From Artocarpus heterophyllus (lineage: Eukaryota > Streptophyta > Magnoliopsida > Rosales > Moraceae): DNA of 64,000 bases. This document shows, in pieces, positions 25,143 through 56,544 of this stretch (its first letter is position 1; every line of letters begins with the position of its first letter). The notes beneath the pieces are model-generated. The model was given only the letters and a program-made list of their open reading frames with translations, did no database searches and had not been told where the DNA came from. The stretch spans positions 18,104,440 through 18,168,439 of the forward strand of contig CM046327.1 of assembly GCA_025403435.1 (NCBI GenBank). The letters run 5' to 3'. A program made the position numbers and the translations under genes.

Positions 25143-27324
25143 TGTCACGCCCCGGAGTACGGGAAATGACGTGATGGATTATTTATTAATTAAAAGGAGA
25201 ATTTAATTAAAATCAAGAGTTTAGGGGTTAAATTAAATAATAAAAATGTGAAAGTTTTAAAACAGCATTGTATAAAAGAATTTATAAAACATTAAGCATG
25301 TGAAATCATTAAGCGAATAATAAAATAATAAGATAATAAAGAACCGTGAATATGGATCCCACTGACCCACAACTTGTGCACACACATAATACTGGCAATA
25401 TAATAATACAACCGCAGTCCAAGTACAAATAGAGTTAAAACATTACATGTCTTGATCAAGTTCTACAAATAATCTACTAAGCCTTTTACTGCTCCTAAAT
25501 TCTGTCCGTTGAGTCCTCTCTGAACCTAAAAGGAAATCCACCTAGAGGGGGGAATTTAAGAAAAACAAAGAAAATGTGAGCGAAAGGCTCAATAAAACTG
25601 TATTTTAATAAATCATTTAATTTAAAGAAAGTTCTCACTATTCAGGGAATTATTTAAAAGGAACCATGAATAAATAAATAAACTTAAATAAAACTGTTCT
25701 TACCAAAACAGTTTATTCGGTCGACCAGAAACATGATTTTCTTTTCCTAGGCAAACCACATGAATATCACCACCGTAGTGGCCCAGCTGGGTTTCGGGAT
25801 CTGCCCCCAAGGTCGATCGCTACACGACCCGATCTTTGATATGGCATCATGCCCTTATATTTATTTTTAACATTATTCAAAACCAATTTACCAGGTGTTT
25901 TCATTATCATTCATTATGAAGTTCATTTCAGTTCAAGGTTTACAAAAAAAATACAACCGGTAAATTCCATTTCCAATCAACCATTGAAAACATTTTTATA
26001 GAAACCCCTTTCAAAGCCAAATCATTTTGAAACTGGGCTACCAAAGATAGGGTAGAAGTCCTACCTCAAAACTCGTGCCGGTGCTCCACACCGTAATCCC
26101 GATCCGCTATACGTTAGCTTCGCAAAACCACGAATGATCCTAGATACACACTAAGTCAATCAATATCTAGTTCGAGACATTCTATGTTACTAAACTATTT
26201 CATGATGTCCTAGTGTGCCATTTGTATCTTTAAAATCATTTTATAAGGTTGAAATTTCAATCGGGGTTCAAAACAGTGAAAAAGGATAAAAAATCACAAA
26301 ATTTTCCTAGGCCCGTCGGCCTGTCGGACGCCCTGCTTCGGAGGGCCGAACTGTGCAGTTCAACCTGCCGAAAATCAAGTCCGGTCACCCGGACATTTTT
26401 CAGGTTCAGCCTGCCGAATGGATGAGTCCGGCCTGCCGATCCTTTGAATCCGGCCTGCCGAACTGGAAAAACCCAAAAATCTCAACCATAGGTTTTGGTT
26501 CTCCCAAAATTCAAATCTTGATTTTAACCTATTTTTCTCAAGTCTCAGACATGGAAAAAATTTATAGATGATAGAAAAACATAATAGAACACTTTTGAAC
26601 TCATTTAAGCAAGATTTAAACACAAAATCCCAAAAATCCAAAAATGGAAGAAAATGAGGAAAAATGAAAAATCTTGAATCAAATCCGTTTTTCTTCAATC
26701 CAAGCTTAGATTCTAGGTGTTTTAAGTTCTTTTAACTCAAATCAAGGGTTTTCTAAGCTCAAACAAACTTAGATTTTAAAAATGTACGAAAATTAAAAAT
26801 TTTGAAAAAGTTTAAAAATTTCAAAACTAACCTCAAATTCAAGCTTCAATCCATGTTTTTGGTTGTTCAATCGAGCTCCCGAGCCTCCAATCCACCAAAA
26901 CCCGAAGCTTGAACTTGATTGGATTCAAAATTTTGAGGAAAAATTGAAAAAGAAGAGAGAGAGTGAGAGAGACTCACGGGTGAGAGAGAGAGAGAGAGCC
27001 AAAGAGAGGGAGAGGAGAGAGAATAAATAGAGAGAAATGGTAGGCGGTTTTACTGTGCGAAAACTATGTGCCGCATACGGTTTTATAAAACGGAATATAT
27101 TTATTTATTATTATTTTTTTAAACAAACGATTGTGTTTTAAAAACTCAAAATGACATTTTAAACTAAGAATGAATCATTAGAATTCACTAAATTAACAAA
27201 ACAACTTAAAATTTAAACTTTAAAATTTAGCTAAATGATTAAATTAATGTTGAAACGTTAATTATGACACATTAATTCATCATTTTATATTACAATAACA
27301 TTAAATTAATTTTGAGGCGTTACA
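25143..27324 (-). mobile_element. Ty3/gypsy LTR, minus orientation, with GC-rich near-palindrome array
   Basis: Starts TGTCACGCCCC and ends GGCGTTACA on the plus strand, so in its sense direction it begins TGTAACGCC like the other gypsy LTRs in the window. It shares stretches with 27987-29921, for example the block around 25550-25620 containing 'gtgagcgaaag', but is clearly diverged from it. There is no adjoining primer-binding site or coding region, so it is a solo LTR or fragment. The five bases before it (atttc) do not recur after it (acttt), so its history may include a rearrangement. GA-rich sequence at 26958-27020 probably lies near the sense-strand transcription start. Confidence 0.75.
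26316..26462. repeat. Array A: seven GC-rich near-palindromes at about 22-bp spacing
   Basis: Units based on TCGGC-CT-GCCGA (12 bases: two 5-base inverted arms around a 2-base spacer) start at about 26316, 26337, 26359, 26380, 26405, 26427 and 26449. The last three are exactly 22 bases apart. Variants keep the inverted symmetry in several cases, for example ttcgg…ccgaa at 26337 and tccgg…ccgga at 26380. It is a sharp GC-rich island in an AT-rich LTR. Function unknown. Confidence 0.85.
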
Positions 27325-27981
27325 ACTTTTTTTCTTTTTCAACTAGCTCTTGACTCTTTCTCCGTTTGGACCCGTTAGTATAATGCACGTATTCACCCCC
27401 GTTGGATTCGGTCAATATTTTTTCCACAAATCTAATAACTAAAATATAAATACATAACGACTAAAATACAAATATGTAACGTTAGGTTTCTTTTTTGATA
27501 CTCATAAAAGAAATTGCCGAAAGTTTTATCCTACATTATTTTTTCAAGGAAAATAACATTATTTTTTTCAGCTCATGATAAATCTTTTTTTTTTTCTTTT
27601 TTTTAAGGAGAGACAAAGTGGAGCGTGCTTTCCCTGCCAATATACTTTCCCAGGGGATAAAATGGCCCAGCCACAATACATTCCACCTAGCTATACTTCC
27701 AATTCACCAACCAATTGAATCCAATATGCAACAAGAAGAAGAAAAGAAAAGAAAAAAGGTTAATTGATTAGAAAGCGACATATGATGTTTGATGGGCGGA
27801 AAACAAGGGAAATAGTTTAAGTCTAATTTATTTATTTGTTTACTTTTCACTGATCTTTATCTACAGAAAGAGGGCCTGAGTATGAATGAAAGGTCTAGCG
27901 CTTTTGCAAATTTTGTCTCTTCCTGCTTCTTCTTCTCCGTCTTTCTTTGGTTAATTTGACAAAATATATGATCTTTGGATA
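27325..27981. other. Spacer between two related LTRs, no gene seen
   Basis: About 660 bases of AT-rich sequence with poly-T and GA-rich runs. No primer-binding site, polypurine tract or coding remnant was recognised, so it does not look like the internal part of either neighbouring retrotransposon. Confidence 0.5.
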
Positions 27982-27986
27982 ATTTC

Positions 27987-29921
27987 TGTGACGCCAGGAG
28001 TGAGGGCTAGGAGTTTTAGATAAATAAGTCAAAATTAAGGTAAATATATACATAGGAAGTAAATAAATATCATTAAAAATAAAAAATATCATCGACGGTC
28101 ACTGTTACGTGAATGCCACAAAGGTGGGGCCGAAATCTTATTCTCATTCACCATCATGTGAGTGCTTACCACGAAGGTGGACAGGTAAATAAAATACAAT
28201 ATCAAAAACAATAATACAAAAATACTAAAAATCATCGTCTTTAAGAGAAATTAAAAATATACAATTAACAAGACGAAAATGACATCAACACCGGGATAAG
28301 TCATGCAGTATATGCATCATACCACAGTTTCAAAGAAAATACCATTTCAATCCAAAGATCCAGGTTTCGATCCTGTGCCTATCCTTTCTTCTCAAACCTG
28401 GAAGGGGAATTTAAAAAAAGAAAACGTGAGCGAAAGACTCAGTATGATAATTAGTTAAACACAAGTTATTTTAAAATAGTAATCAAAATAGATAATTGTT
28501 CACAAACTGTTCTATTTGAGATGAATCTTAAAGTCTTAACAAATCAATAAAAATACTTACTTGAAAGCAACTTGATAAAACATCACCGTATGGGTTTTGG
28601 AAATCTGAAAGGAATATCAAAATACAATTCTTCAAAATCAAAGACAAATTATTTTCATCAATCATTCAAAAGGTCAAGCATTTGGCCCAAACAGTTTAAA
28701 AAGGGTTGCCAAAGAAAGGGAAAGAAATATGTGTATATTCTACCTCATTTAAATCCAATACCGTAAGCTCCAAATAAAATCCAACGTATGCTCCATATAT
28801 GTTCAAGAGCTTAAAAATTGCATTTAAAATCAGAAATCATATTTAACAAATATTATTATGTTAATTTAATTATCAGTGTGCCTTTTGATTCAAAATAATC
28901 ATAAACCAAAATCATAATCCTTTTTGAAACATTTTGAAATCATTAAACATTGAAAACTGAAGTAAAAACATAATTTTCTAAGTCTACAGTCGGCCTGTCG
29001 AACATCCTGGTCCGGCATGTCAAACTGCACAGTTTGGCCTGCCGACCAACCAGGACCGACCTGCCAAACTTTTTCAGGTTTGGCTTGCTGATATGATGAA
29101 TCCGGCCTGCTGAAACTATGAATTCGGCATGCTGAATATCAAGTTCGGCCTGCCAAACTAGCAAAATCTAAAGACTCGATACCTTGAGTATTGACCTCCC
29201 CAAGCTCAAAATTCAAATTTAAAACTTGTTATCTCAATCCCAGAGCATAATAATCACATAAAAAACATAGAAAATTATAGTAGAATAAACTTAAATCATT
29301 TTCCCAAAATTTAAACTCAATTTCACAATTGATTTGAAAATCAAAGAAAAATGTCAAAAACTTGTTTAAATCAATTTTTGTTCAAATAAAGCTTAAATCC
29401 ATGATAAAACAAGTCCTATAAGCTTAGGTTAAATATTATCTAAGCTCACCAAAGTTCAGATTTAACAATCAAAGAAAATTTAAAAAATTGAAAATAAAAT
29501 TTTGAAATTTTAAGAAAAAAGAGAAAGCTAACCTTTAATGGTGTTTTTGGATGAAAAACTTGATGATTGAACTTCAATCCTTACTCAAATCCATGAGAAT
29601 GAAGCTTGAAATCAAAATTTTGAGAGAAAGAAAGAGAGAGAGGGAGTTGTGCGTGAGAGAAAGAAAGAGAGAGAGAGCGTAAAAGAAAAAGGAAAGGGAA
29701 AAGAAACATAAAAAGAAAAGCCCCAAGGACGTTTTTGTAAATACAAGGAAAATGTGGCATAAAAATATCATTTAGTATTTTAAAAACTAAAAATCAAATT
29801 TTAAATATGACAAATGTAACAAAATTTTAAATAACTGAAAATTATATCAAAAATTACACTGGTACATTTAATAATTAAACTTAAGATAACTAACCTTACT
29901 TTAAAATTCAGAGGTGTTACA
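27987..29921 (-). mobile_element. Ty3/gypsy solo LTR, minus orientation, with GC-rich near-palindrome array
   Basis: 1935 bases starting TGTGACGCC and ending GGTGTTACA, flanked on both sides by the 5-base duplication atttc (27982-27986 and 29922-29926). The duplication with no internal region identifies a solo LTR. It belongs to the same broad family as 25143-27324 (shared 'gaatttaa…gaaaa-gtgagcgaaag' block, same place and type of array). GA-rich sequence at 29620-29690 occupies the same relative place as in the sister LTR. Confidence 0.85.
28989..29158. repeat. Array B: eight GC-rich near-palindromes at about 22-bp spacing
   Basis: The CGGC core (or a one-base variant) of each unit lies at 28991, 29013, 29035, 29057, 29081, 29103, 29125 and 29146, that is at intervals of 22, 22, 22, 24, 22, 22 and 21 bases. 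Units are more decayed than in array A (many C-to-T and G-to-A changes), but the phase is kept. Spacer words such as aacatcctgg and atatcaag reappear in arrays D, and A and C, respectively. Confidence 0.85.
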
Positions 29922-29926
29922 ATTTC

Positions 29927-30340
29927 TGTCTTAAAAAATAAACCACCCCCTTAATCTTTTAAATTTTAATATACTATCTACTTATAATTATCCTAAATCT
30001 CTTATAGGCCCTTTTTCAAGTTTTAATCACTACTTGTGTTTCATCATGATCTACACAATATTTTCTGGACGATGTTATTTACAAATTTGTACTAACACTG
30101 CATGGTCAATTTATGAGATTTAAGTTTAAAGATAACAATTTTTTTAAAATATTTTAGAAATAAATACATACTAGTTATTGCAATGATGTTCATGTTTATA
30201 CACTACAAAAAATAACATAATAATTACTTTAATGATTTCAATTCTGCTATTTGTAAAATATTCATAACTTTTTGCTATATTATAATGTGACTAGTAAAAC
30301 TTTACTACAACTTTTGCTATAAATTCTATGATTACTAACC
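29927..30340. other. Non-coding stretch, no gene seen
   Basis: AT-rich sequence between the solo LTR and a short MITE-like element. It contains phrases such as 'gctatttgtaaaatattcataac' typical of decayed repeats, but nothing that can be named. Confidence 0.4.
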
Positions 30341-30514
30341 GGGTGTTTGGGAAGGTGGTGGGAATTGTGGTTTCTACCATTTTTTCAGCTATAAATGATG
30401 TAAAGCTCTCATATTCTACAATAATAATAAAAAAAATTACTACAATACAAAGCTCTCATATGCTACAGTAAAAGTGGTTCTAACTAACAGCTTCTACCAC
30501 CATTCTAAACACCC
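30341..30514. mobile_element. Short MITE-like element, GGGTGTTTGG ends
   Basis: About 174 bases starting gggtgtttggg and ending ctaaacaccc, imperfect inverted ends. Inside are two copies of the phrase 'aagctctcatat(g/t)cta', with a continuation 'cagta' in one. Close relatives of this phrase appear at 39100, 39930, 40140, 42070 and 48550, so this is the clearest member of a small dispersed family. hAT-like by its ends, but no 8-base duplication could be read. Confidence 0.6.
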
Positions 30515-30804
30515 TATACCAGAGTGTGAAACTTTAATTCTAACTCATCAGTTATAATTATGAACAGTATAAAATTCTTAGCAATTATAATAAATAGCAA
30601 AAAATTACTAGAATATAAAATTTTCATATACTACATTTCTTAAACTTAAAATGTCAATTATAACTGAAGTTCTAAACATAAGCTAAAATGCATTGTCCAC
30701 ATGTTTTGTGTAACCAAAACTTTAGTAGGTATTTGTATTAAAATCCTATTACTAGAGAGATGAATTAAAACCATGTTGTGGACAAAGGGCGGGGCTAGCT
30801 GTAT

Positions 30805-30835
<31 letters not shown>

Positions 30836-32066
30836 TCTTTGTAATCAGAGAGAGAAATAGTGGAAAGCAAGAGACGTCAACAGTGACGACATCTTTAGCG
30901 GCATGTATGGCCCTCAATCTCCTCCAGCACACTTCTAAATTTTATACGTTTCTCTCTTCCTTCCTCACACGCACTCACCGTAGAAAGAGAGAGGCCTTTT
31001 TTAATCAAGTGTTAAGCAAATCACCACCAGTAAAAACCTGTGTAGAAAAAGACCCTTTGTTAATAAAAGACTTGTGATAAAGAGATATTGCAACATCGTA
31101 AAAAGTGAGGGCAAAATAAGTCCTACATTGTTTGTAACAACTTTGATATTTCTTGACTGCATAAAGGTATTTGTAGCACTTCCTTTTCCATTTTTCTTCC
31201 TTCCACGGGAAGTGGTGTTCCTTTTTTCTATTTGATTAAAATCACATCAAACTTAAATATATGCAAAACAAACAGTTTTTAATATAAATCTCGTTAATAC
31301 TTTTCGGTTAAAATGATATATTGTTCTATGTTAAGACCATCAACATTACACATATTTTGATACATATCTAATGGTTGAAAAACATAAACCTAACAATAGT
31401 TTATTTTTTAAAATTCTACCGTAGAAATCTCTTAAAAAAATGATATTCTACATTCTAATTCCTTCAACAATACGTAATCACAGCAAAGTCGTATTTGAGG
31501 AAAAGCTAAGCTCAAAGTTTGGCGAGAGATGGGGTCACCCCACATTTTTTCACCCATCTCGAGCCACGCATGGAGCTACATTAATTATATTTTAATTGTT
31601 GTATAAAGCAAAATAGCTAAGCTTATAAGGTTAAATCAAATGCGGCTTGGCTAGAGAGAGTGGTAACACTAGTAGTAGTGGTAGTAAAATAGAGCATGTA
31701 GACATAGAAATTGGAGGAGAATACCACCCAATTGGACAACAAAGGTGATTTACATATCCAAATCCAGAGGCCAACAGTACAAGATTGTTTATTGACTTCG
31801 TGGTGGTCAGGTTTTGGGATCCCAACCCCAATCCCATTTTTTTTTAATTTTATTTTTTAAAAAATTTTTTGTGCGTGGGTTATAAGCTTTTTGAAAGATT
31901 CTTCTTGCGCAGTACCATAATGACCGTCCCCCCTTTTTTTTTTTTTTTAAAAAAAAAAAATTAACTACCTGATCAGGAAAGCCAGGCCCAACCATAATTC
32001 CTGTTCATAGGTTGGCTTGTAAGCATTTTGGTTTTTTATTTTATTTTATTTATATTTTAAAGGTTA
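30515..32066. other. Non-coding stretch with AT/GT microsatellite
   Basis: A compound microsatellite (AT repeats then GT repeats) lies at about 30804-30833. Frames at 30658-31077 and 31631-31995 are repeat-derived or featureless. A poly-T/poly-A pair near 31930-31962 could form a simple hairpin. No gene recognised. Confidence 0.45.
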
Positions 32067-33073
32067 TTAACATTTATGGCTCTAAATTTTAAATTTTAAG
32101 GTCTTTCATTTTGTCCCTTAAACTTTAAAAATTAATATTTTGTCATTACTTTAAAGTTATCATTTTATCTCCTATTTTTTATTTTCTATTTGAATAAGCT
32201 CACGTGATTCGCACATGATCACCTGTAAGGGTAAAAATAAAATTTTATAACTCTTAGGTTTTGTTCATGTTTACACTCATTTAACTTTTCTTTTTTTATC
32301 AGTTCTCATTTAAAATGCATATTCTATTTGAATAAGCTCACGTGATTCGCACATGATCACCTGTAAGGGTAAAAATGAAATTTTATAACTCTTAGGTTTT
32401 GTTCATGTTTACACTCATTTAACTTTTCTTTTTTTATCAGTTCTCATTTAAAATGCAGATTCTATTTGAATAAGCTCACGTGATTCGCACATGATCACCT
32501 GTAAGGACAAAAATAAAATTTTATAACTCTCACGTTTTGTTCATGTTTACACTCATTTAACTTTTCTTTTTTTATCAGTTCTCATTTAAAAGTGTCTGCA
32601 TGCACATTTTTTCTTAATATTGTTCGCCGTTATTTCCTCATCTTTAATGCGTAACTCATCTTTTTTATATTCAAATTCAGAAATCGCCAAACAATATCGA
32701 TTTATTAAATGAGTTATGAATCAAAAATGATAAAAAAAAAGTGCAAGCAAACTCTTCCTAAATGAGAGTTCAGATACAAAAACAAAGGCGTCAAGCGAGA
32801 GTATAAATGTAAAACAAAACTTAGAAGTAATGAAATCTTATTTTTGCCTTTATAGGTGACCCATGTGGGCTTAATTCCGTCTATTTGAATAGAAAATTAG
32901 AAATTTAGGAGACAAAGTGAAGAGCTTTGAAAATTTAAGGGCAAAATGGTGATTTTTAAAATTCAAGGGGCAAAATGAAGAGTTTTGAAAATTCAAGGGC
33001 TAAAGTGATGATTTTTAAAGTTCAGGGGACAAAATAAAAAAGACCCTAAAGTTTAAGAGGCAATTAATGTTAG
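32067..33073. mobile_element. Fold-back (long-TIR) element, about 1 kb
   Basis: The left arm (from 'ttaacatttatggctc' at 32067) and the right arm, ending 'ggcaattaatgtta' near 33073, are imperfect reverse complements. The match extends through paired phrases: left 'ttgtcccttaaactttaaaaat', 'gatcacctgtaagggtaaaaat', 'tttacactc'; right, in reverse complement, similar words in the same order. The turn lies near 32650-32720. It has no coding capacity. Long arms and a short centre define a fold-back or long-TIR non-autonomous DNA transposon. The left arm is lengthened by a tandem triplication (32184-32597). Confidence 0.7.
32184..32597. repeat. Tandem array, three copies of a 138-bp unit
   Basis: The word ttctatttg recurs with period 138 (its C at 32186, 32324 and 32462). 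The three units differ at only a few bases (for example 'gggtaaaaat' versus 'ggacaaaaat'). Each contains a CACGTG G-box core, agctcacgtgattcgcacatgatc, split here by description: CACGTG followed within a few bases by cacatgatc. The right arm of the fold-back element has only one matching copy, so the expansion happened after the element formed. Confidence 0.9.
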
Positions 33074-33580
33074 ATTCTATAACACCACTTTGTCACTTGT
33101 AAAATTGTATCTTTTTTTTTTACATTAACAAAATGGTTGAAAAGTTGTCTTGATACTTAACAACATGAATAACATATGGGACTCATCATTTAAGTCCTTT
33201 GATTCATTATTCATTATAATTGTCCTTAATAGAAATTTGGGTTTTTGCAACTTGCCTCGTCATTATCCATCAAAGCAGTCCATTGCCTTATCTTTTCCCC
33301 TATACATGAACATGATCCGAATTTCTCTAACAGACTAGGCAAAATTTTGTTCAATTTTGCATAGCATATCACACTAGTAGGAGCTTTTGGGGGAATTCAT
33401 TACGTGTGATACCAAAATTGCATGAATTATTATGCCTCATTTGAGTAAAGCATAGGCTACATATATAGAGACGTGTATAATTATGTGCAAACTTAAAGGG
33501 CATTTTGGTAAAATTACTATCCACTGTTTTCTTTTCTTTTTCTCCAAAACAAAAAAGGGTGGAGGACACCTGACCTCATT
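33074..33580. other. Upstream region of the HD-Zip gene
   Basis: AT-rich sequence between the fold-back element and the core promoter. It probably holds upstream control elements of the HD-Zip gene, but none can be singled out from sequence alone. The small open frames here show no family features. Confidence 0.4.
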
Positions 33581-33587
33581 TTTCCCT

Positions 33588-33594
33588 TATAAAA
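33588..33594 (+). promoter_or_regulatory. TATA box of the HD-Zip gene
   Basis: TATAAAA about 190 bases upstream of the start codon and before a purine-rich leader; the best core-promoter candidate for the gene at 33781. Spacing leaves a 5' leader of about 160 bases. Confidence 0.6.
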
Positions 33595-33698
33595 TGGTCC
33601 GTGGGTCTTCTTCCTAGCCATTCACTGCCTTCAACAGTGAACAAACACAACTCAACACAAATTCACTCATATTTTGGAAGGCAAAAAAGTGAGAAGAA

Positions 33699-33765
33699 CT
33701 AGAGAAAGAGAAAGAGAGAGAGAAAGAGAAAAAGAAAGAAATTAGTGAGAGAAAGAAAGAAAGAA
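33699..33765 (+). repeat. GA-rich 5' leader of the HD-Zip gene
   Basis: A purine run of GA and GAA repeats (gagaaagagaaagagagag and similar) directly upstream of the ATG. GA-rich leaders are common in plant transcription-factor genes and can bind GAGA-binding BPC proteins; whether that happens here is inference. Confidence 0.6.
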
Positions 33766-33780
33766 CACTTGACGATCAAC

Positions 33781-35483
33781 ATGAACAACCAAGTTGACGA
33801 AGACCATATGCATATGGCACTAATTTCTCAGCTCTTCCCGGAAGTCTACACCCAAATAGCACCTCAACAAGGTTTGTCTCTTCATAAAAATAATAATAAT
33901 AAAAAAAACCAAGAAAGAAACTCCTCTTACATTTTTCTCGTTTTAATAAAACACACAAAAACGCACTTGTAATACACAGTTACACATTACAATGAGCTTA
34001 ATTAAAAACTAGTTTTTTTTTTTTTTTAATTCTCACAGGCGAACCGAAGCCCCGACGCCGCCGAAAGAAGAACAAGAGCGGCGAGGGCAGCGGAGCAGCC
34101 GAGGCGAAGAAGCGAAAGCTGAGCCCGGAGCAGGTGAATCTGCTGGAGATGAACTTCGGAAACGAGCACAAGCTGGAATCGGAAAGAAAAGACCGTTTGG
34201 CCTCCGAACTTGGCCTTGATCCTCGCCAAGTCGCCGTCTGGTTCCAAAACCGAAGGGCTCGCTGGAAGAACAAGAAGCTGGAGGAAGAATACTCAAGCTT
34301 GAAGAAATTGCATGACAACGTCGTCGTCGAGAAATGCCGTCTTGAATCCGAGGTTCGCTCTCACTTAATTTCTGTTTTTATTATAGTTTTTTTACGTGTA
34401 TTAATTATATACGTATCCATATATATTTTTTTTAAATGCGCCTTATTTTGTGTCTGACTTTTCCACTAGTTTACTTTTTAGAGGCAAAGTCTTCATTTTT
34501 CCGCTGTACAATAGTTTACTTTTTTTAATATAAAAAAAAAGGTAAGTGTTTTGAGCTATTTTCTCTGGCTACATCATATAGACATATCAAATTTTGGAAG
34601 CATGTTTCAACATGGGTTTTACCTTTTTTTCCCTGCATTTTACAACACAAGTCACTGTTCTATTTCTTAAAATATACATGCCTCGTGATATATAGTGATG
34701 TAAAAAAAAAAAGAAAAATTAAATTAATATTTGTTCTCATTGGTTAAGTTGCTTATAAACGCCCTAATGGTTTTCAAGTCTTATCCTTAAAAAAAACGAA
34801 AAAAAAAAGTCGGAGATAAAAAAAAAAAGAGAAAAAAAAATGTGACCCACCACGCACGAACGTGCATGAGCTCTGGGCTCGAAGAAAGCCACGCCATCTT
34901 GTTGGGCTTAGTCTATGAACAACCAAGAAAAGTAGGAAAATTTTTTGACAAGGAACAGCTTACTGCCGCCTCATTAGACAGCAAAGGGTCCTATGTGTTC
35001 CGGTCCTCTAGGGGCTTCGTACAATGTTGTTTCAAGGTGGTTCGTGTTGGGCTTCTCTAAGGCCCACCATAGGGGACAGCACGTGAGGCTCCCGCGTGGG
35101 ACATGGCCCACCAAAAATATTGGTTTTTTTGTCCATATATTTTACTAATTTGACTATGTCCACATATGGTATTTTAATTATTTGTTTCTTTCTTTATCCA
35201 CGTGGTCTATTTGCTAAGGCAATGTTCCTATGGGGGGCAAATGGTGCAGGTGCTACAACTCAAGGAACAGCTAATGGATGCTGCGAAGGAGATCCAACGG
35301 CTGGTGGAGCGCGCCGAGGGTGTGTCGAGCAACAGTCCGAGCTCGTCGCTGTCGATGGAGGCCGTGGAGCCGCAGCCTTTCTTCGGGGAATTTGGGGTGG
35401 TAACTGCAGGGTATGACAACATGTTTTATGCGGCCGAGAACAATTACATTCATGGGATGGACTGGGCGAATTTGTACCTGTGA
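33781..35483 (+). CDS. HD-Zip class I transcription factor, ATHB-21/40/53 type
   Basis: Three exons: 33781-33871, 34039-34352 and 35250-35483, introns of 167 and 897 bases with GT-AG borders, giving 212 aa. Residues 1-30 are an acidic/hydrophobic head ([12 protein letters not shown]); 34-56 is basic ([13 protein letters not shown]; likely nuclear signal); the homeodomain spans about 52-110, with recognition helix [10 protein letters not shown] at 98-107; a leucine zipper follows directly, with heptad positions L111, L118, V125, L132, L139, A146 and L153; the tail ends in an aromatic/acidic motif (MDWANLYL) like the activation tails of class I members. Homeodomain plus immediately adjacent zipper defines HD-Zip, and the overall length and the [15 protein letters not shown] stretch match the ATHB-21/40/53 group. 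In Arabidopsis that group acts in bud dormancy and ABA responses, known mainly from BRANCHED1 targets; the role here is inferred. It binds pseudo-palindromic CAATNATTG sites as a dimer in the nucleus. Confidence 0.93.
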
Positions 35484-37899: not shown

Positions 37900-37941
<42 letters not shown>

Positions 37942-39063: not shown

Positions 39064-40033
39064 GGTGTTTGGTAAACATAATTAGAATAACTTTTTGGTT
39101 TAAAATATTGTAGCATATGAGAGTTTTATATTATAATAATTTTTTTTATTTTTTTACTGTAGCATGTAAAAACTTTATCCTATTTGGTAATTAAGTTCAT
39201 GAGTACAACTTATCAACTTGCACTGTTTTCATGCAAAAATGTCATCTTCAAATTAAATCCATTATCCATATATGTTAGGCAAAGACGTACAACATATTTG
39301 ATATGTTAGATACATGTTTTATTCAGGTTTATTTGATTTTGGGATGCAATCTCATCCAAACTTGTTCGGCACATGTTCTTGGACTTTATATGGAAGCTTG
39401 TTGCTAAATAAGATCTTTTAAATGGTGGGTTTTGTTTTTTCTTTTTTGTTTATTAGATGTTGATGTATCAAAAGCAAGAAGATAATTACACTTTACAATT
39501 TATAATTTCTTTAGCCAAATTTATCTGAAATAATGGTCTTCGCAGGCTACTGTCCAACGTGGCGTCAAAAATGACTCCACCCTATAATTTAACTTATGTT
39601 TCTTCTCTTTTTCGTTTTTTTAATCAATATTTGTTTTTATGACGTAACATATACACACCGCATAGAATTACGTAAGCAACAAAAGTAAAGTATACCTCTA
39701 TATGATGAAGCATTGCCACGTTCACACAAGTCTTTCAAGCAAACATCACCCTCACATTAATAAATTGATTCATTTATATATAATTTTTTTGTTGACCACA
39801 TAATTAAATTAAGCGACGAAAATAATTTGTATTAGCAACTTGACGAGGGAATGTATAACATTTATGGTCTATCTTATATTAGTTAGTTTTAATTAATTTT
39901 TTAGTTAAAAATAATATATAGTTCTCACATGTTATAATAAAAATAAAAAAATTGCTACAGTATAAAGCTCTTACATGTTATAGTATTTACAGTTCTAACC
40001 AATGGTTTCGACGATCATACCAAGCACACTATT
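39064..40033. repeat. Cluster of decayed short MITE-like copies
   Basis: Gggtgtttggta at 39064 starts a copy with 'gtagcatatgagagttttatatt'. Another stretch at about 39885-40033 has 'gttctcacatgttataataaaa', 'gctacagtataaagctcttacatg' and ends ataccaagcacac. These share words with the elements at 30341 and 40243 but have lost clear ends. They indicate repeated insertion of one small family upstream of the kinase gene. Confidence 0.5.
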
Positions 40034-47900: not shown

Positions 47901-48501
47901 TCCCAGATTTATCATATTAGAAATATTTTAATAAAACCCTAGAACATTGTTTTCATGCAACAGAAAGTGCCGCCATGTGCCTCCTGGTCGGTCGCCGTGC
48001 GCCACCGGATTCATCTTCTATTTGACATCGCCCCCATCAAAATGTTTGTTAGTCATCAATTTATAAATCTCCGTTGTTTTCGTTGCCTACTGTTGCCTCT
48101 TCCGCCTCCAATTGCCTCCTATTTCTGCTTCCTCGTGCCTCATTCTCCGCCTCTCCTTCACTGTCTAAACTGGTACTACTAGATTCAGAAAAAGAATTGT
48201 GTGATAAAACCTTGGGTTCACGTCTGTCAAACTCACCACAAGAAGTCGCATGTCACCTTGCCATGTGCTCCTCCAACCTTTACAATTTCTCTCAAGGCTT
48301 CGTCGTTGTGAGTGAGGACAGAGATGGTCACGAATGGTAAGAGAGAAGGAGAGAGAGGAAAAGAGAAAAGGTGAGAGGAAGAGAAAGAAGGAGGAAGGGT
48401 GAGGAAGAGAGTGGAAGAATTTTTCAGTTTTCCTATTTAGGGTTATTGTAGACAATTTTCTTATAAGTAAATTCCAAAATTGACATTAGAATGTTGTTTT
48501 A
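44982..48501. other. Downstream of kinase and intergenic, no gene seen
   Basis: Begins with the kinase 3' region, including the C-rich tract listed separately. Open frames near 46315-46690, 46912-47130 and 47955-48340 have no family features. A stretch at about 46735-46910 uses wording typical of decayed MITE arms ('gtcactttgtcttataattttaaaaag'), but its partner arm was not found. A GA/GGAA-rich run lies at about 48338-48415. Confidence 0.45.
45146..45178 (-). repeat. C-rich tract, G-quadruplex-prone on the minus strand
   Basis: Thirty-odd bases almost all C, broken by single A or T (cccccc-a-ccccccc-t-cccccc-t-ccccccccc). The complementary strand has four G-runs of six or more with one-base loops, the textbook pattern for a very stable G-quadruplex. 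It starts about 165 bases after the kinase stop codon, so it may lie in the 3' untranslated region or transcription-end zone. Confidence 0.75.
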
Positions 48502-48625
48502 AGAATGCATTTAGTAACGCAGTTAGAACCAAAACTTTGAACGATTTTATAGTAGCATGCGTGAGCTTTATATTGTAGCATACCAGTTGAAACAATGTTT
48601 TCTTAACGGCGTTGCCAAACACTCT
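48502..48625. mobile_element. Short MITE-like element, decayed ends
   Basis: Left end agaatgcatttagtaacgc is an imperfect reverse complement of the right end ggcgttgccaaacactct. The middle has 'gtagcatgcgtgagctttatattgtagcat', the phrase of the family at 30341 and 40243. No coding capacity. Confidence 0.5.
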
Positions 48626-49251
48626 CTAGATCACAACATAACAATAAATTGGAAACCTACATTAAATTAATAAATAGAAGGTAAATAGCTTTTTTTTAGA
48701 AATCAAATTAAATGATAGGAAATTTAGAGAAGTAAATAAACATAGCATTAAATTCAAAATTTTCCACATTTAGCCACGATAAAATTCCTTGGTAAATTCC
48801 ATATTTACCTAGAAAAATTTGAATTTATCCCATGATCAAATTTGGTAAATCCAGGTTTTTACCAAATTTACCCCATAACATCTAGTACTCTTCTCAAGTC
48901 CAAAATTTTATACGTATTTTCAAATTATTTTTGTTTACATAAAATATACTAATTTTTTTAGGTACTAAAATCATTTTTACACTTACAAATCTTTCTTTGA
49001 AATTAAAAATGTTGTTCATTAATAATTGTAGGACTTATCAATGAGTTTGAATTTACCATAATGAGTATATGGGTAAAATTGGGGATGTCGCCGTTAACAC
49101 AATTGCATAACCAGTCATGTTTTTAGTTGGCATGCCATTTGATAATAACTCACAATAACCCATTTGATAATAACTCACAATAACTAATCAAGTAATTTCT
49201 TTTTTTGGTTTTGAATTATACATACTTATGATTACGTTTAATTTGTGCCTT
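48626..49251. other. Non-coding stretch, no gene seen
   Basis: AT-rich sequence before the plus-strand LTR. A short direct duplication (gataataactcacaataac, two copies separated by a few bases) lies at about 49141-49182. Confidence 0.5.
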
Positions 49252-51708
49252 TATGACACCTGTTATTCTCGTAACGGGTATTAAGGTAATTAAATTAATT
49301 TTTAGTGTGCCAATAAAAAATTTGTTTCATTTAAAATCCATTTCACAATATTTAATTTTATCTATTTTTAAATTTTTTAAAATTCTCCTATACTTATCTA
49401 GTATGTTTACTGAAAAGTCTTGAAACTTTTAATAAATTTTGAAAATGTCATTTTGGCATTATGTGGGCTAAAGTCTCCAGAGGAGACATGATGATATCTT
49501 TTCCAACTACTCTTGACCCTCATTTTCTTTATTTCCTCCGTGACATGCTCCAACATGTCTCCTCCATAATCACTTCTATCACTTCTCTTCAAAGACTTCA
49601 TCTTTTTTTCCTTTTTCTTCCACGGTTCCCACACTCTTCTTCTCATTTCTTTGCTTAAGCAAAATACTTAGAGAGCTTGTTCAAGGCAGCCATAAAAATC
49701 AGCCACTATTACCTCCATTTGAGCAAGAATTTTAGCCATACCGAAGTCAATGAACCTGTTTTGAAGCCATTTCAAGCTTTTAACTAGCCATAATCTGATG
49801 TTAGAATCTTATGAACAAATTTAGTAATTCATTTATAAATTTTTTTTATACTCAAGGATTATTCAAATTTGCATTCTTAAACCTAAGTATATGTTTTGTT
49901 GCTATTTTGGAGCATATGTATAAAGTCTAAGTGTATATGTCGTAGACAGAAAATTTATATTGTTAAACTTTGTAATACCTCTATGAACAGTAGCTCTTTC
50001 TTGAAATTCTAGGATTAAATAAAAATGAATTTTGTAAATTGGTTTGAATATTTAAAAAGTAGACATCCTAAGCTTTCTAACGAGCTATCATAAGCCTAAA
50101 TTGGAGTTGTATTTTATTTTCTATGAATTTTTTAATTTTCAGATTAGAAACTAGTAAACCTACCAGTAGCAATATACCACCCGTTTAGGTTAAGTAAACC
50201 ACCTGTTAACCCATGTGATGATTGTATATAGTGAACCTATCCTTTTTGTAAAAGTATACTGCTTGTTTGCCATGGTATACTAGTTGCTAACCTGAACCAA
50301 GAACCCATATTTACTCACCACCTAATTCCTTAATGTCTTGCAACCTTTCTAATATTATCCTAAGTGATTGATGAATCTTATTAGGGACTAAAACATATAG
50401 ATTACTTGTATACATTTTATATTGTGTTAAGACAAAAATTGTTTACTGTGATATTCAAAAGATATTTGCATAAAAGCTTTAATGGCACACTAGTAAGATG
50501 GATTTACACATGATTTATTTATGAATGTGATTGTATGTTGTGCTTTAGTTTTAATTGTCCTTATGCACGCCTTAGGATCAAGGGAGTATGGAGCTAACAT
50601 TAATTGATTTCGGGATTAAAAGATTGTTGATAAGCTTGGAAGGTAGGGATTCTATTACTCATCTTTTGTGAGGTTTTGGTTAATTAAAATTTGTTGTTTT
50701 ATGTTGCAAGATATGTATATGGTATTTTGAATGTATATGATTATATCTATAATATGATAATGTAGAACTCGTCCTGTATTGTATAGCGAGGAATATAATG
50801 ATTTGACACATGTTGTAAATTAAGAAGCATGGTTAGGAAAACTGACTCTATAAATAACGATTTAATATAAAGGAATGGTGAGACGTGAAAAGGGCGACGG
50901 TTACGTCCTTGGGCACAAATACCCTAAAAGGTAAAATAGGGGGAGGTGATGATGCTCCCTTGGGTTGAAAGTCTCAGAATGCATTGTACAAGAATCGACT
51001 TGATGAGGACTCGGGGCTTGATGTTCCCTTACTGGATTGCCCATGGAATGTTTAGAGGGTGACCAAGTGCGTTCATTTGGGTTTTGATGAGTTGAGTGAT
51101 ACTATATTGAATGTGGATACCTAGGAATAATGTTGAACTGTAATATTTGTATATATGTATATGTATGAAACTCGATAATGATTAACTATGGTATCCATAG
51201 AATATGATTATAATAAAACTCAAAATCTGGATAATGATGAGTATTAACTAACCATGTAGGTTTTAATGTGGTAATGATAAAAACCTAGAGGTGACTAATG
51301 GTTTTTCCTACTGAGCATATTGTCGCTCATTCCCTTATATTTTTATCTTTTCAAGACACACTCAGTGTGAGGTGGCTACGAGAAAAATAGTTGAGGAAGC
51401 TATGTAGCTATATTACGTTAGGACTGCTTTAATTGTTAATAATGTTCTTCATGATAATGTAAGTATCAATTGTTACTTTCTGTGACTGTATTAAAATGCG
51501 TTGAGGGTTGAAATGATGACGACAGTTTATATTATCAAAATTAAGGTGCTACATTAAACATAGTTTAATTGTTGTTTATATTTTTATTATTGATTTGAGA
51601 GTTTTCATTTAAGCCCCAGGCAACTTTATTTTTGAGGTTTTACTTTTATTTCTGATTTTTTTATTTTAATTCATTAAAAACTGTTAACTCCCATATAGGG
51701 GCGTTACA
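49252..51708 (+). mobile_element. Old Ty3/gypsy 5' LTR, plus orientation
   Basis: 2457 bases, starting tatgacacc (the usual TG changed to TA) and ending ggggcgttaca. It aligns with the split solo LTR 3123-4418 + 14944-16097 over its whole length with scattered differences. A primer-binding site follows on the plus strand, so this is the 5' LTR of a former full element, not a solo LTR. No matching 3' LTR is present up to 64000; the rest was deleted or lies outside the window. Confidence 0.85.
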
Positions 51709-52842
51709 TAATTTTTAGTATCAGAGCTTAGGTTCAGTTAATTTAGGGACTGTAGCACCACCTTTTTTTTAAAAAAAATTGTTTTTGAAATGGTTTTGAA
51801 GTTAAATTTTCATTGTCATCATCAATATGAACCTTCAGGTTGATTTATACAGTCCATGAGGATGTAACATAGAAAGGTTCTAGAATAAAAGTATTTATAG
51901 TTATAAGGGAGTGATAATTATATGGAATGAGTTTATAAGTATAATGCTTATGAGAGATTCGTATAATATTAGGATCTATAAGCATATCTAATTCATATGG
52001 AATGATGAGAAATTCGTGTAGATACGAGGATTTAAGAGCTTTTTATCTCATGAAAAACAATAAGAAATATAAGGCTTGATTTATTGATTTCAAAGTTTGG
52101 CATAGATGTGTCAAATTCTTCGTACTTGATTCAGACTTAAGTAATGATTATTGTGGATTTGGTGGAGCACATAAGTGTCAATAACTTTTCTTGAAAGTTC
52201 TATTTACTTGAGAAATATGAGATAAGTTAGGATTCATGGTATTGCATATTAAGTGAGATAAACGTTAGACTTTTGGTCTGTTGAGACTATGTAAAGGGAA
52301 GAATGCATGAATTTCAAGGTTAGAATATTTTGTTACGTACATTGTATTTAAGTATATAAGTGAATCTTTATGAATAGATGCAATGTGAAAATGACCAATA
52401 GAAGTTTCCTTAAGTAAATCATAATATTTAAGACACCTATAATAATTTTAGATAATTACGATAAAAGGTTTAACTTCTAGATGTTTAGATGTGAATCTTT
52501 TGGTTACCTAAGGTTTTGTTATATGAGGAAATTAAATATTGTATAAGTGGAATTGTGGGGATTGTAGATGTTCTTAAGTAGTAACATCAAAGGTTTTTGT
52601 TCATTGATATGGTCTATGTTGGAAGATGTAAATCGTATTGATTTCAAGGTTAGTCACATTCTAAACCCTTGGTAATAATGATGATGACTCCATTGATAGA
52701 TGTTGAGTATTAGGTGCATTGTTCAATAAGGTTTTGATTAAAATAAATTATTTGAGTTGCTAGAAGATTATGTTATTATGAAATGATTTTAAATACCATT
52801 CAGGAAGATCCCTGATTGTCGTTAAATTAGACTTGTTGTTCA
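51709..52842 (+). other. Decayed internal region of the old Ty3/gypsy element
   Basis: The first 60 or so bases match the leader of the young element (primer-binding site, then 'taggttc', then 'tgtagcaccacc'), so the start is certainly retrotransposon-derived. Beyond that no gag frame can be followed; the sequence is AT-rich and full of stops. It ends where the Ty1/copia element has inserted (52843). Confidence 0.65.
51716..51729 (+). other. Primer-binding site remnant (initiator Met-tRNA)
   Basis: TAGTATCAGAGCTT, two changes from the TGGTATCAGAGCCT seen in the young element, seven bases after the LTR end, the same spacing as in that element. Confidence 0.8.
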
Positions 52843-54278
52843 TGTTAGACATGTATGCCCTAAGGAGTAAAAATGTAATAAGTTTTTGGAGATATTTTTA
52901 TCAATAAAGAATTTATTCAGTATTTATATACCAAATCTTGTCCTCTTTACGTTCATATTTGTTAAATGTATGTTAAGCAAACAATAGTCTGAGACTATCG
53001 GTCTAAACCTTAAGAATTGGGCATATGATGGACGGATTATGCGGAAGACACGATTCTTGAGGTGATGGTCTAAATCATACGATCCGCAATCGAATGAATA
53101 AAGTTGGGTGCTTTATTCATGCAAAGATTGTTATGTTGTCTATATCCCTTTTGGGAGATGGTTTGTCTTAACCATCAGAGGTGGACTTCATGAATAGAAA
53201 TATTGGCAGGTTATCATAAGTGACGATGTGTTGGATCGGGACATAAAGTGAATTGATTTGGATTAATAATTATGTCTCGGCAAATCGATTCACTTTAGAC
53301 AATTATTTGTGTTGTATTTTAATCCTGAGATCAATAGTGAGCCCGTTGTCTTGGCTTGTGTCTTTTGATGTACCAAAGGGTGACACCCATATCTTAATAG
53401 TGGTATGCATGTTGGTACGTTGGAGGCATGACTCTTGATAGCGTAGACTTATTATTCATAGATATGGAATCCATAGCTCCTCTTTAGGAGTAATGATATC
53501 CTCTTATATGCGTTATCCTGTAATTGAAAAACTGGAGCGCTTAACCATTTGGATACATAGGTGTAACCGAATGGTATACTGTCTTTGGATGGTAAGTTTT
53601 CTAATAGTGAGATAATGGAATGTAAGATAAAAATAATCGAAAAGGTAAGACAGAACTTGTCCTTAAGCCGATTATGGATTATCATATGGTGATACGATAC
53701 ACTATGATGTGTCATGGAGACTTAGCTATACGAGCTTCGTAATTCTATGTAGTTTGAAAGTGCAGCTCCAAGCTTTTAGTGGAGAAGCGTTGGAGTTGAT
53801 AATTATGAAATGTATATCTGGGATATTGGGTTTCATAATTATCAGGAGCTTGAACTATATAGGTCCATTTGGTTCACTTTGCTAGCTCATAACATCCTGT
53901 AGTGACACGGCGTGCTTTTTCAATAATTGGTGACTTATGTCGGATTTATTAGATTGGTTGAAATTTAGAAGAATCAGATAATTCATGTCTGTTTATCGGT
54001 TGAATTAATTTTGTAATAAATTAATTCAAGATAAACTTGTTGAATTACTGGGATCAGATAATTCTTGTCTGTTTATCAGTTGATTTAATTTTGGATAAAT
54101 TAGATCAAGACAAACTTGTAGAATTATTGAGACTTGATTTATTTTCTTAGAGATTATCTAGATAAAGTTGTTTTGATCAGATAACTTCTCTATTGGGTTA
54201 TTAGAATTAAATCTGAGATTTTATCCTATAGAATCTCGGGTGAAAAATAAAAGATTTGCGAGATTTTTTATTCGGCAG

Positions 54279-54356
54279 TTCGGCCTATCGATAGACGTGT
54301 TCGGCCTGCCGATGGGACCTGTTCGGCCTACCGATCAAGTGGTTCGGCCTGCCGAT
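54279..54356. repeat. Array C: four GC-rich near-palindromes in the copia LTR
   Basis: Cores CGGC at 54281, 54302, 54324 and 54345 (intervals 21, 22, 21), consensus TTCGGCCTGCCGAT. A partial unit (cggcag) lies just before at 54273. The 3' LTR has only three units (61927-61985). Confidence 0.85.
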
Positions 54357-54473
54357 CAGCGAAGGATAAGATTACGCATTTCCACGTGGATCTTATCAGA
54401 TATTGATTCGAATTTGATTCTGATCTGAATTTTGAGACCTAATATGATGATGACTGACCCTAGGACCATCCTC

Positions 54474-54480
54474 TATAAAT
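54474..54480 (+). promoter_or_regulatory. TATA box of the copia 5' LTR
   Basis: TATAAAT in the context cctctataaatagg, kept unchanged in the 3' LTR at 62101-62107. The start of the retrotransposon transcript is expected about 30 bases downstream. Confidence 0.65.
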
Positions 54481-54876
54481 AGGGAGTGATTCTCACAAGT
54501 TACTCAGATCAATAGAGAGATTAAGAGTAATACTCTGCTAAGTGAGAATCTGAAAACTCCCTGAGAGCTTTTGTTCACAGATCATGAACACTTGCTTTGG
54601 GTTCTCTCGATTGGTTGGAAGGAGAGTCACCAGTGGAAGAGCTGTACGTGTAAGCCCACACTCACTCCGGTCGTGGATAGAGAATAGCAAAGAAGGCCAG
54701 TTGGTTGAGGCTCTTTTGGAACATTATTTCTCTTCACAGATTACGGAGGTTCTTCAGCATACAAAGGTTAGTAAGATCTGGTTAATTTATGCATATAGCT
54801 TGTTAAACTTGTGTTTTAAAAATTACTCTGATGCAAAATTTTTTAAAATTCTGCTGCGTACTATTTTTCCAACAAT

Positions 54877-54893
54877 TGGTATCAGAGCCATGG
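54877..54893 (+). other. Primer-binding site of the copia element
   Basis: TGGTATCAGAGCCATGG, complementary to the 3' end of plant initiator Met-tRNA, two bases after the 5' LTR end. Confidence 0.92.
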
Positions 54894-56544
54894 TTTTTAC
54901 ATAAATTTACGAGTTTGTGATCATGTTATATGCATAAATTTTGTGATCTTAATCTCTCCTATGCTTGAATTGAATTTTATAGAGAGTTGGCACTCTAGGT
55001 TTCTATAAATTATATATGTTGTCATGGATTATGTGGTGAATGTTTATTAATTAGTTATGGTTGATTAAATTATTGTTTAATTATTTATTAATTAATTTAT
55101 TTATACCGATTATGGTTCCTTAGAGGTTAGAATATGTATCTAAGTTTTTCATGTAATTAGATAGCGTACTATCATATCCGTCTGGAAATTATTATTTATT
55201 TTAAATTTGTAAAAAATTTTGTAATTAAATAATTATTCAGAGAAGACGGATCTAGAAGATTGATGATGATACTCCCAGGTATTTCTTGAGTCTCTAATTT
55301 TATGCTTTTGAATTGTTGAAAATAAAATTGATAAATTGCTTTAAAAAATTGTATTTTCTGGAATGGAGATTTCTGCTTAGTCGGCATGCCGAACATCCTA
55401 GTTCAGTAAGCCGATGGTCACAGATCGGCAGGTCGGACGTGTGGTTCGGCAGGCCGTCAGTGGGGCAGAAATCGACTGGCTCTGCCGGCAGGCCGAACTT
55501 CTAGTTCAGCAGGCCAAACTTTCATGAGTCGGTAGGCCGATCTTCCTGATCGGCAGGCCGATGAAGCATGACCGGCAGGCCGATCACCCAAAACGGCCTA
55601 CCGACCGAGAGCTAAAAAATTTCAAAAAAGGTGTAGTTTTTTCAATATAGTTTTAATTTTATTTTTAGGACAATTTTGAGAAACATTAAATTTGGATATG
55701 ACCGGAAATATGAAGTGTTCAATTCATACGGGATTGAAGACTTGAAGATTGAATTGCATGAAGAAGGATACAGCTTGAGGATTCAAAGATGAAGAATTGA
55801 TAATATGTCTCGATTATTCTCTTGTAATCTTAGTTTTCTATTCTCTAGGGTGGAGCCATAATATTACGGTTATTATTATTATTTTGCTTGTAGCTTTGCT
55901 TGATTGCTTTGCTTGTCTGTATTATAATATGATTTACTATGTATATTAATAACATGTCATATAGAATAGGGAGTGCCGCTCATATTAAAATTGTTCATGC
56001 ATATTCTTAAAATAAAACATTGATTTCAAAAGATTGAGTGGGAGAAGGTTTTCGAAGAGAGGACCTAAGGCCTCCATCGTTGGTTTATAGGCAGAACATG
56101 ATGGTCCCGACCCCTAGGAAGAGATTTCTATCATGTACCAGATTGGATCTCTGAGAGGATAAGGTATTTTAGCATGATTTATGGTTGCACACCCCTAGGT
56201 GGTGATTATAAATCATGGATAAAATATTGAAACAATAGTTATACACTCACGTTAATTAATCAATGGCTAAAGAAACGATTATTAATGTATGTTGGATCAT
56301 ACGGGTCCTGGATGACATATATTAATCAGGAGGGGATCCGTGTTTCTGATTGAATTTGGCATGACTCCCCTAGGAGCTTGTTGAATTCTGAGTTGGGAAT
56401 TATCGTTGTAAGGTTGTGATATTTTTAAGGTTTTGACACATAAACACATTTGTATGATTTTTACATGATTGTGTTATCTTACTAAATTATTATTATTATA
56501 TGTTTGCTTATGTTTGGTATATGATTCTTTATTGTAGATTAAAA
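54894..56544 (+). other. Untranslated leader of the copia element
   Basis: About 1.65 kb between the primer-binding site and the gag ATG at 56545, long for a Ty1/copia element. No coding remnant was recognised. It carries array D (55380-55606) and an ATT-rich stretch near 55870-55890. Confidence 0.7.
55380..55606. repeat. Array D: about ten GC-rich near-palindromes in the copia leader
   Basis: Cores at 55382, 55404, 55426, 55447, about 55473 (or 55486), 55507, 55530, 55551, 55573 and 55594; most intervals are 21-23 bases. Consensus TCGGCAGGCCGA, the reverse complement of the form in array C, so in the sense strand the spacer between the arms is AG instead of CT. The last unit (cggcctaccga) is in the other orientation. 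A GC island in an AT-rich leader. Confidence 0.85.

What the first reader, a model, noticed from the sequence alone, without database searches (positions are those of the whole stretch)
26316..55606. Regularly spaced GC-rich near-palindrome arrays shared by Ty3/gypsy and Ty1/copia elements
Five arrays (26316-26462, 28989-29158, 54279-54356, 55380-55606, 61927-61985) contain together about 32 copies of TCGGC-NN-GCCGA. The copies are repeated every 21-22 bp, so each is a 12-14 base near-palindrome plus 8-10 bases of variable spacer. The phase holds even where units have decayed. They occur in LTRs of two gypsy elements and in both the LTR and the leader of a copia element, which are different superfamilies. 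A 21-22 bp repeat is two helical turns, so all units would face the same side of the DNA. In RNA each unit could form a tiny hairpin. A dimeric protein binding site, a packaging or translation signal, or a silencing target are all possible. I know of no described element of this form.
Basis: partly seen in the sequence, partly recalled or inferred. Interest (0 to 1): 0.8.

Follow-up and report, generated by a model that had tools for sequence, protein, structure and literature searches.

The report
Palindrome arrays in plant retrotransposon promoters
Several old plant retrotransposons in this stretch carry rows of the same short mirror-image DNA motif, mostly spaced about two helix turns apart, probably landing sites for a plant protein that switches them on or marks them for silencing; similar rows are known from one retrotransposon group (Sireviruses), but here they sit in elements that do not look like members of that group.

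Summary
Five arrays hold 32 units of TCGGC-NN-GCCGA; 23 of 27 neighbour spacings are 21-22 bp. No pair of such sites (up to two mismatches) 20-24 bp apart arose in 200 shuffles. Palindromes are kept between units (69-90% identical) while spacers are near-random (29-33%). The arrays lie in U3 of both LTRs of a Ty1/copia element, 118 bp before TATAAATAGG; in that element's leader before gag; and in two diverged solo LTRs with gypsy-like ends, whose arrays correspond unit by unit. That paper calls them Sirevirus-specific. The copia element here fails three tested Sirevirus features but meets others, and the solo LTRs seem to be another superfamily. Best reading: sites for a dimeric host DNA-binding protein acting as LTR enhancer. 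Small-RNA silencing is the main rival; a conserved RNA hairpin is not supported. A new variant of a known kind. The genome-wide test could not be run because the search did not complete.

The parts
52843..54874 (+). 5' LTR of a Ty1/copia element; flanks GTTCA/ATTCA (4 of 5 bases agree)
   Evidence: 93% identical to the 3' LTR; TGTTAG...CCAACA; followed by ATTGG-TATCAGAGC
54280..54355 (+). U3 palindrome array, 4 units (54280, 54301, 54323, 54344), CT centres, in a CpG-rich stretch
   Evidence: CpG o/e 1.27-1.49 against 0.63 for the window
54474..54483 (+). TATA box, TATAAATAGG, 118 bp after the array
54875..54888 (+). ATTGG + primer binding site TATCAGAGC
55381..55604 (+). leader palindrome array, 10 units; centres AG in 7 (the reverse of CT), AT, AA and CT in one each
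56545..60475 (+). copia gag-pol remnants (gag, integrase, reverse transcriptase, RNaseH), broken reading frame
   Evidence: RNaseH assigned by position and by eye
60490..62501 (+). 3' LTR of the same copia element
61928..61982 (+). 3' LTR copy of the U3 array, 3 units; one 21-bp unit fewer than in the 5' LTR
25143..27324 (-). LTR A, apparently solo, ends TGTAACGCC...GGCGTGACA; flanks ATTTC and ACTTT differ
   Evidence: sequence; no TATCAGAGC near
26316..26461 (-). palindrome array in LTR A, 7 units
27988..29921 (-). solo LTR B, TGTAACACC...GGCGTCACA, target-site duplication ATTTC
   Evidence: no TATCAGAGC near
28990..29156 (-). palindrome array in LTR B, 8 units, counterpart of the array in A plus one unit

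Best explanation
The arrays are clustered cis-regulatory boxes of plant LTR retrotransposons, of the type called RM boxes in Sireviruses. Each TCGGC-NN-GCCGA unit is inferred to be a site for a dimeric, two-fold symmetric host DNA-binding protein. Several sites stacked every 21-22 bp in a CpG-rich stretch about 120 bp upstream of the TATA box would act as an LTR enhancer, and a second cluster in the leader as a downstream enhancer. Shown here: motif, spacing, conservation of the palindrome against the spacer between units, position relative to TATA and gag, gain or loss of whole units, presence in an element that fails Sirevirus features. Inferred: protein binding, activation as the effect, and the use of one host factor by unrelated families.
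For: Palindromes are 69-90% identical between units of an array while the 9-nt spacers are 29-33% identical (four arrays, last leader unit and the 3' LTR copy left out). Information content is 0.93-1.66 bits in the twelve palindrome columns, 0.54-0.88 in the two columns on either side and 0.01-0.28 beyond. The arrays of A and B match unit by unit, with the one long spacing (24-25 bp) at the same place, and the array is more conserved than its 300-bp flanks (102/146 against 328/571, Fisher p 0.006). Both array indels seen (A/B and the two copia LTRs) are 21 bp, one unit. The copia U3 array lies 118 bp before TATAAATAGG in both LTRs, in a CpG-rich stretch, much as for RM boxes (PMC2829016). PMC10760457 (passages) cites work in which palindromic arrays define the LTR cis-region.
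Against: No binding, expression or methylation data. Between A and B, palindromes (59/84) are no better conserved than spacers (43/62), so recent selection on the core alone is not shown. In LTR A, TATA-like words occur at six places, so the one 70 bp after the array is not distinctive; LTR B has a single one, far from the array. CpG o/e is raised in the copia LTR, but only 0.83-0.96 over the array of A and 0.63-0.76 over that of B, against 0.63 for the window. A relative, L007 (integrase 72% identical), has no site within two mismatches in its LTR or in the part of its leader that is held. PMC2829016 found no single known factor for the RM boxes (section 19).
Confidence: 0.55

Rival explanations
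1. The arrays are mainly silencing targets: palindromic units in transcripts form hairpins or double-stranded RNA, and the resulting 21-24 nt small RNAs, each able to span one unit, direct methylation of the LTR.
For: Palindrome clusters are reported as small-RNA hotspots in maize Sireviruses (Bousios 2016, not held; as cited in passages of PMC5311732 and PMC10760457). The leader array folds far better than dinucleotide shuffles (z -6.83), the sense strands of A and B at z -3.67 and -3.68. 27 of 42 core mismatches are C>T or G>A, 14 of them at CpG, as methylation would give; but 8 of the 10 core bases are G or C, so this is weak.
Against: A silencing target gives an element no reason to keep the palindromes. 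The copia U3 array folds about as well as shuffles (z -0.97). With palindromes kept and spacers shuffled, z over eight array strands ranges from +1.04 to -2.92. No small-RNA data could be examined.
Confidence: 0.2
2. The units act in RNA as small stem-loops (packaging, translation or Gag binding).
For: Each unit could form a 5-bp stem with a 4-nt loop (from the sequence); the leader is a usual place for packaging signals (general knowledge). The strong fold of the leader array.
Against: 37 one-sided against 2 two-sided core changes in 29 units, only one of the two keeping a pair. The copia LTR array lies upstream of TATA, outside the 5' end of the genomic RNA. No Rfam match at gathering thresholds in 54000-56600 (the arrays of A and B were not scanned).
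Confidence: 0.08
3. Ordinary tandem duplication of a GC-rich 21-22 bp unit with no function; the palindrome is incidental.
For: The period and the whole-unit indels fit slippage or template switching. Equal divergence of palindrome and spacer between A and B.
Against: Spacers are near-random between units while the palindrome is kept; the same palindrome recurs in separate families; it persists with two CpGs per unit in an AT-rich window with CpG o/e 0.63.
Confidence: 0.12
4. The arrays of the copia leader and of the gypsy-like LTRs share descent through recombination between superfamilies, not convergence on one factor. This can be true together with any of the functions above.
For: The first spacer of B (ACATCCTGGT) and of the leader (ACATCCTAGT) agree in 9 of 10 bases: shuffle p 0.002 for the top match and 0.002 for the mean best match of those two arrays. 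Mean best match also gave p 0.006 (B) and 0.016 (A) against the reverse complement of the copia LTR array.
Against: These are the best of eight copia/gypsy-like comparisons, so the top match is about 0.016 after correction; bases flanking the palindrome add matches. The other seven top matches gave p 0.09 to 0.55.
Confidence: 0.15

Closest known systems
Sirevirus repeated-motif (RM) boxes (Bousios et al. 2010, PMC2829016; e.g. Barbara TCGGTCYCACCGA, Usier GTCGGACGTCCGAC, HOPIE CGGACCGTCCG)
   Same: Many-copy palindromes with a CGG...CCG core, upstream of TATA in the LTR, in a CpG-rich stretch; a second cluster inside the element; unit counts in range (3' LTR plus internal cluster of this copia: 13; the paper lists 3 to 14 per 3' LTR)
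   Different: The copia element fails three tested Sirevirus features; the second cluster is upstream of gag, not env; the array starts 1.4 kb into a 2.0-kb LTR, not 200-400 bp in; the same palindrome is in an unrelated LTR family; regular 21-22 bp spacing (spacing in Sireviruses was not seen)
Maize Sirevirus palindromes CACCGGAC...GTCCGGTG, small-RNA hotspots (passages of PMC5311732 and PMC10760457)
   Same: LTR palindrome clusters; [quoted passage not shown]
   Different: Different sequence; maize Ty3 elements generally lacked a peak of structure (PMC10760457); small-RNA association untested here
Short interrupted repeat cassettes, SIRCs, of Arabidopsis (PMC10342631, passages)
   Same: 2-8 short direct repeats (10-29 bp) separated by unlike spacers, found in mobile elements including LTR/Gypsy; some repeats contain palindromes
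   Different: A purely structural class attributed to MITEs by its authors; most repeats not palindromic or with 3-bp arms; no common motif or position upstream of TATA in the passages seen
Symmetric cis-boxes such as Tnt1 box I and an activator in the 5' UTR of the copia element (both only as cited in PMC2829016, section 19)
   Same: Symmetric regulatory sequence in LTR or leader
   Different: Sequences not compared here; the paper's background speaks of arrays of two or three boxes

Membership tests
Sirevirus RM box (as a motif type) | Repeated palindrome with CGG-CCG core | tested here: met
   16 of 17 CGG-N4-CCG lie in the arrays
Sirevirus RM box (as a motif type) | CpG island a short distance upstream of TATA in the LTR | tested here: inconclusive
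   copia LTR CpG o/e 1.27-1.49 and TATA 118 bp on (paper: 37 bp after the island on average); formal island calling not run; A (0.83-0.96) and B (0.63-0.76) not clear
Sirevirus RM box (as a motif type) | At least eight copies per element | tested here: met
   copia 3' LTR 3 + leader 10 = 13; solo LTR B 8, but solo LTR A 7
Sirevirus (the copia element) | Polypurine octamer AGGGGGAG 10 bp before the 3' LTR, in several copies | tested here: not met
   none in 54878-60489; the site reads AAGTGAGAGAT
Sirevirus (the copia element) | Long linker (average 1.5 kb), sometimes with env, between pol and 3' LTR | tested here: not met
   14 bp from stop codon to LTR
Sirevirus (the copia element) | C-rich integrase signal near the LTR 3' end | tested here: not met
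   no run of three C in the last 80 bases (54798-54877)
Sirevirus (the copia element) | 5' LTR/PBS junction CA/ATTGG-TATCAGAGC | tested here: met
   also in L007
Sirevirus (the copia element) | Large size (average 10.55 kb, LTR 1.28 kb; classic copia 5.6 and 0.56 kb) | tested here: met
   9.66 kb, LTRs 2.0 kb; this counts against calling it a classic element
Sirevirus (the copia element) | Place in the reverse transcriptase/RNaseH tree; inverted repeat around the polypurine tract | not tested
   no reference set of lineages was at hand; inverted repeat not examined
Ty1/copia | Integrase before a copia-type reverse transcriptase | tested here: met
   rve in 57813-58499, RVT_2 in 58661-59374 and 59378-60130
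Ty3/gypsy (LTRs A and B) | Gypsy pol between the LTRs | not testable with these tools
   no internal region; only the ends TGTAACRCC...GGCGTSACA resemble those of the intact gypsy at 4419-14938

The most novel reading that the evidence does not exclude
RM boxes are not a Sirevirus trait but a general plug-in of plant LTR elements: in this genome one palindrome, TCGGC-NN-GCCGA, read by one host protein, has been taken up by a non-Sirevirus copia element (twice, in LTR and leader, in opposite directions) and by a gypsy-like family, with sites held on one face of the helix at two-turn spacing, so that unrelated families are switched on or silenced together.
Probability: 0.3. Interest if true: 0.6.

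Novelty: new variant of a known kind. Interest (0 to 1): 0.4.

Why it matters
In the paper that described them, the RM boxes had no single known binding protein and were called Sirevirus-specific. One such palindrome of fixed sequence, in a copia element that fails Sirevirus features and in apparently gypsy LTRs of one genome, suggests a shared host factor and gives a simple probe (TCGGCNNGCCGA at 21-22 bp spacing) with which to look for it.

Tried and rejected
IMG/VR scan for paired units: 6 stretches, each with a single pair, GC 59-73%; taken as chance in GC-rich DNA and dropped. Protein search with an open frame over the U3 array: one candidate, no hit at E up to 10. Copia integrase against IMG/VR: none; against GTDB genomes: one relative among 21 stretches, L007, without the palindrome. 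Its leader has a 75-bp stretch of 63% GC with an 8- and a 10-bp palindrome just where the contig ends; too little to count. A scan for clusters of perfect GC-rich palindromes in the window flagged nothing, not even these arrays, so it cannot say whether arrays of other motifs exist.

Literature: ten searches. Exact motif strings: 69 papers (20 listed) and 7 (all listed); the titles listed look unrelated to plant LTRs and none was opened. In the listings (titles and starts of abstracts; one search listed 20 of 45) I saw no paper on such arrays in plant LTRs other than the Sirevirus work. Six papers were looked into: PMC2829016 (abstract, sections 9 and 19, passages), PMC10760457, PMC5311732, PMC10342631, PMC10794571 and PMC9780303 (passages for chosen words only); the last two had nothing on such arrays in those passages. 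This is no proof of absence: most subscription papers are not held, nor is Bousios 2016. LOB-domain proteins were considered as binders (listing only); nothing tied them to this palindrome. DREB, GRF and ARF motifs were considered from recall and not tested.

Host plant not identified. Intact gypsy protein: a 99% match from an unnamed 6.3-kb ENA contig; best-matching named hit Morus notabilis, 69% over 42%. Copia integrase: among the best 120 of 4021 hits, the named ones include Vitis vinifera (73% over 81%), Sesamum latifolium (60% over 76%) and Cucumis melo (60-63%). That the host is a flowering plant, probably a eudicot, is an inference from this.
Full report
Observation. In 200 dinucleotide-preserving shuffles the means were 0, 0.12 and 3.0, and no shuffle had a pair of up-to-two-mismatch sites 20-24 bp apart, against 20 such sites observed; at up to three mismatches it is 24 against a mean of 0.125. 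Of 30 distinct permutations of the half-site only TCGGC gives more than 2 sites at up to one mismatch. CGG-N4-CCG occurs 17 times, 16 in the arrays; other spacer lengths 0-8 occur 0-3 times. Reading each array at its phase gives 32 units (7, 8, 4, 10, 3): 6 exact, 14 with one mismatch, 9 with two, 2 with three, 1 with four. Of 27 neighbour spacings 23 are 21-22 bp; the others are 23, 24, 25 and 39.

What carries them. (i) A Ty1/copia element on the + strand, 9.66 kb, LTRs 52843-54874 and 60490-62501 (BLAST extends three bases further, 93% identical; 122 of 2014 aligned bases differ, 92 of them transitions), with ATTGG-TATCAGAGC after the 5' LTR, integrase before RVT_2, a broken reading frame and flanks GTTCA/ATTCA. 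The LTR array lies 118 bp before TATAAATAGG in both LTRs, hence in U3. A second array of 10 units lies in the leader, between the primer binding site and the gag ATG at 56545. The LTR units have CT in the centre in 6 of 7 cases, the leader units AG in 7 of 10. (ii) Two LTRs on the - strand without internal sequence: B, 27988-29921, with target-site duplication ATTTC, and A, 25143-27324, with flanks ATTTC and ACTTT; no TATCAGAGC lies near either. Their ends TGTAACRCC...GGCGTSACA resemble those of an intact gypsy element at 4419-14938, TGTAACACCC...GGGGTGTTACA, but they have no coding sequence, so 'gypsy' is an inference. A and B are 59% identical overall and 63% in the longest block.

Evolution of the arrays. 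The A and B arrays correspond unit by unit, with the one long spacing at the same place; B has one unit more. The array is better conserved than the 300-bp flanks (102 of 146 against 328 of 571, p 0.006), with 1 gap event in the array against 8 and 3 in the flanks. Within an array the palindromes are 69-90% identical between units and the 9-nt spacers 29-33% (last leader unit and 3' LTR copy left out). So the units look old, the spacers have drifted to near randomness, and the palindrome was kept. Against this, between A and B palindromes (59/84) and spacers (43/62) are equally conserved; both are copies without coding sequence, and 38 of 42 mismatches over all units are transitions, so recent core-specific selection cannot be shown from them. 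The copia LTRs differ by one 21-bp unit, so whole units come and go.

RNA or DNA. RNA folding of the leader array is far stronger than dinucleotide shuffles (z -6.83), the sense strands of A and B at z -3.67 and -3.68, the copia U3 array at z -0.97. If palindromes are kept and only spacers shuffled, z ranges from +1.04 to -2.92 over eight array strands; much of the folding is therefore self-complementarity of the units. Core changes in 29 units are 37 one-sided and 2 two-sided, one of which keeps a pair. This gives no support for conserved stems. The place upstream of TATA in the copia LTR points to DNA. For A and B the place is unclear: A has six TATA-like words, one of them 70 bp after the array; B has one, far away.

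Cross-family sharing. The leader array and the array of B share one nearly identical spacer (9 of 10 bases; p 0.002 for that pair of arrays, about 0.016 for the best of eight copia/gypsy-like comparisons), a hint of common descent, not proof. A related copia in L007 (integrase 72% identical; contig filed under a Streptomyces genome, 36% GC) has no site within two mismatches, and its leader is cut at a GC-rich stretch.

Known relatives. PMC2829016 (abstract, sections 9 and 19, found passages) describes in 13 Sireviruses a palindromic repeated motif, with a CGG-CCG signature in all but one, clustering in the LTR upstream of TATA, bounding predicted CpG islands, with further clusters before env in the nine that have env. 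The motif type here matches. The copia element fails the polypurine octamer, linker and C-rich signal features given for Sireviruses, but meets the PBS junction and is nearer to Sireviruses in size; no lineage tree was made. If it is not a Sirevirus, the paper's statement that the RM is absent from classic elements does not hold here. PMC10760457 (found passages) reports the maize Sirevirus palindrome also as the most abundant motif in Helitrons, and that maize Ty3 elements generally lack an obvious peak of structure. PMC10342631 (found passages) describes in Arabidopsis short direct repeats with unlike spacers, partly inside LTR/Gypsy elements, some of them palindromic. Bousios 2016 was not held and is known only through citations.

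Conclusion. Real, non-random, probably regulatory, and an extension of a described kind rather than a new kind. Most likely function: an array of sites for a symmetric host DNA-binding protein at the LTR promoter (0.55), with small-RNA targeting as the strongest rival (0.2).

Noticed in passing
window 4419-14938: Intact-looking gypsy element on the - strand, LTRs 100% identical over 2.8 kb, ACGCC on both sides, one open frame of 1583 aa; a very recent insertion, without the palindrome array.
   Followed up: partly
window 49250-51824 and 3121-16097: 49250-51708 matches both flanks of the intact gypsy (3121-4419 and 14939-16097, 87-89%) with the element missing, and 49964-51824 also matches its LTRs in the opposite direction (77-81%): the gypsy seems to sit inside an older LTR of a related family.
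   Followed up: no
L007 (NZ_BMQF01000070.1): A 7.6-kb, 36% GC contig in a Streptomyces assembly encodes a plant-type copia element: apparent plant contamination of a bacterial genome.
   Followed up: partly
window 32181-32594: Three tandem copies of a 138-bp unit, 93-99% identical.
   Followed up: no
window 34002-34457: Homeodomain-encoding stretch, with a leucine-zipper-like continuation by eye, in the most CpG-rich 150-bp windows of the sequence.
   Followed up: no
window 53973-54126 and 61620-61776: A roughly 80-bp tandem duplication in both copia LTRs about 150 bp upstream of the palindrome array.
   Followed up: no
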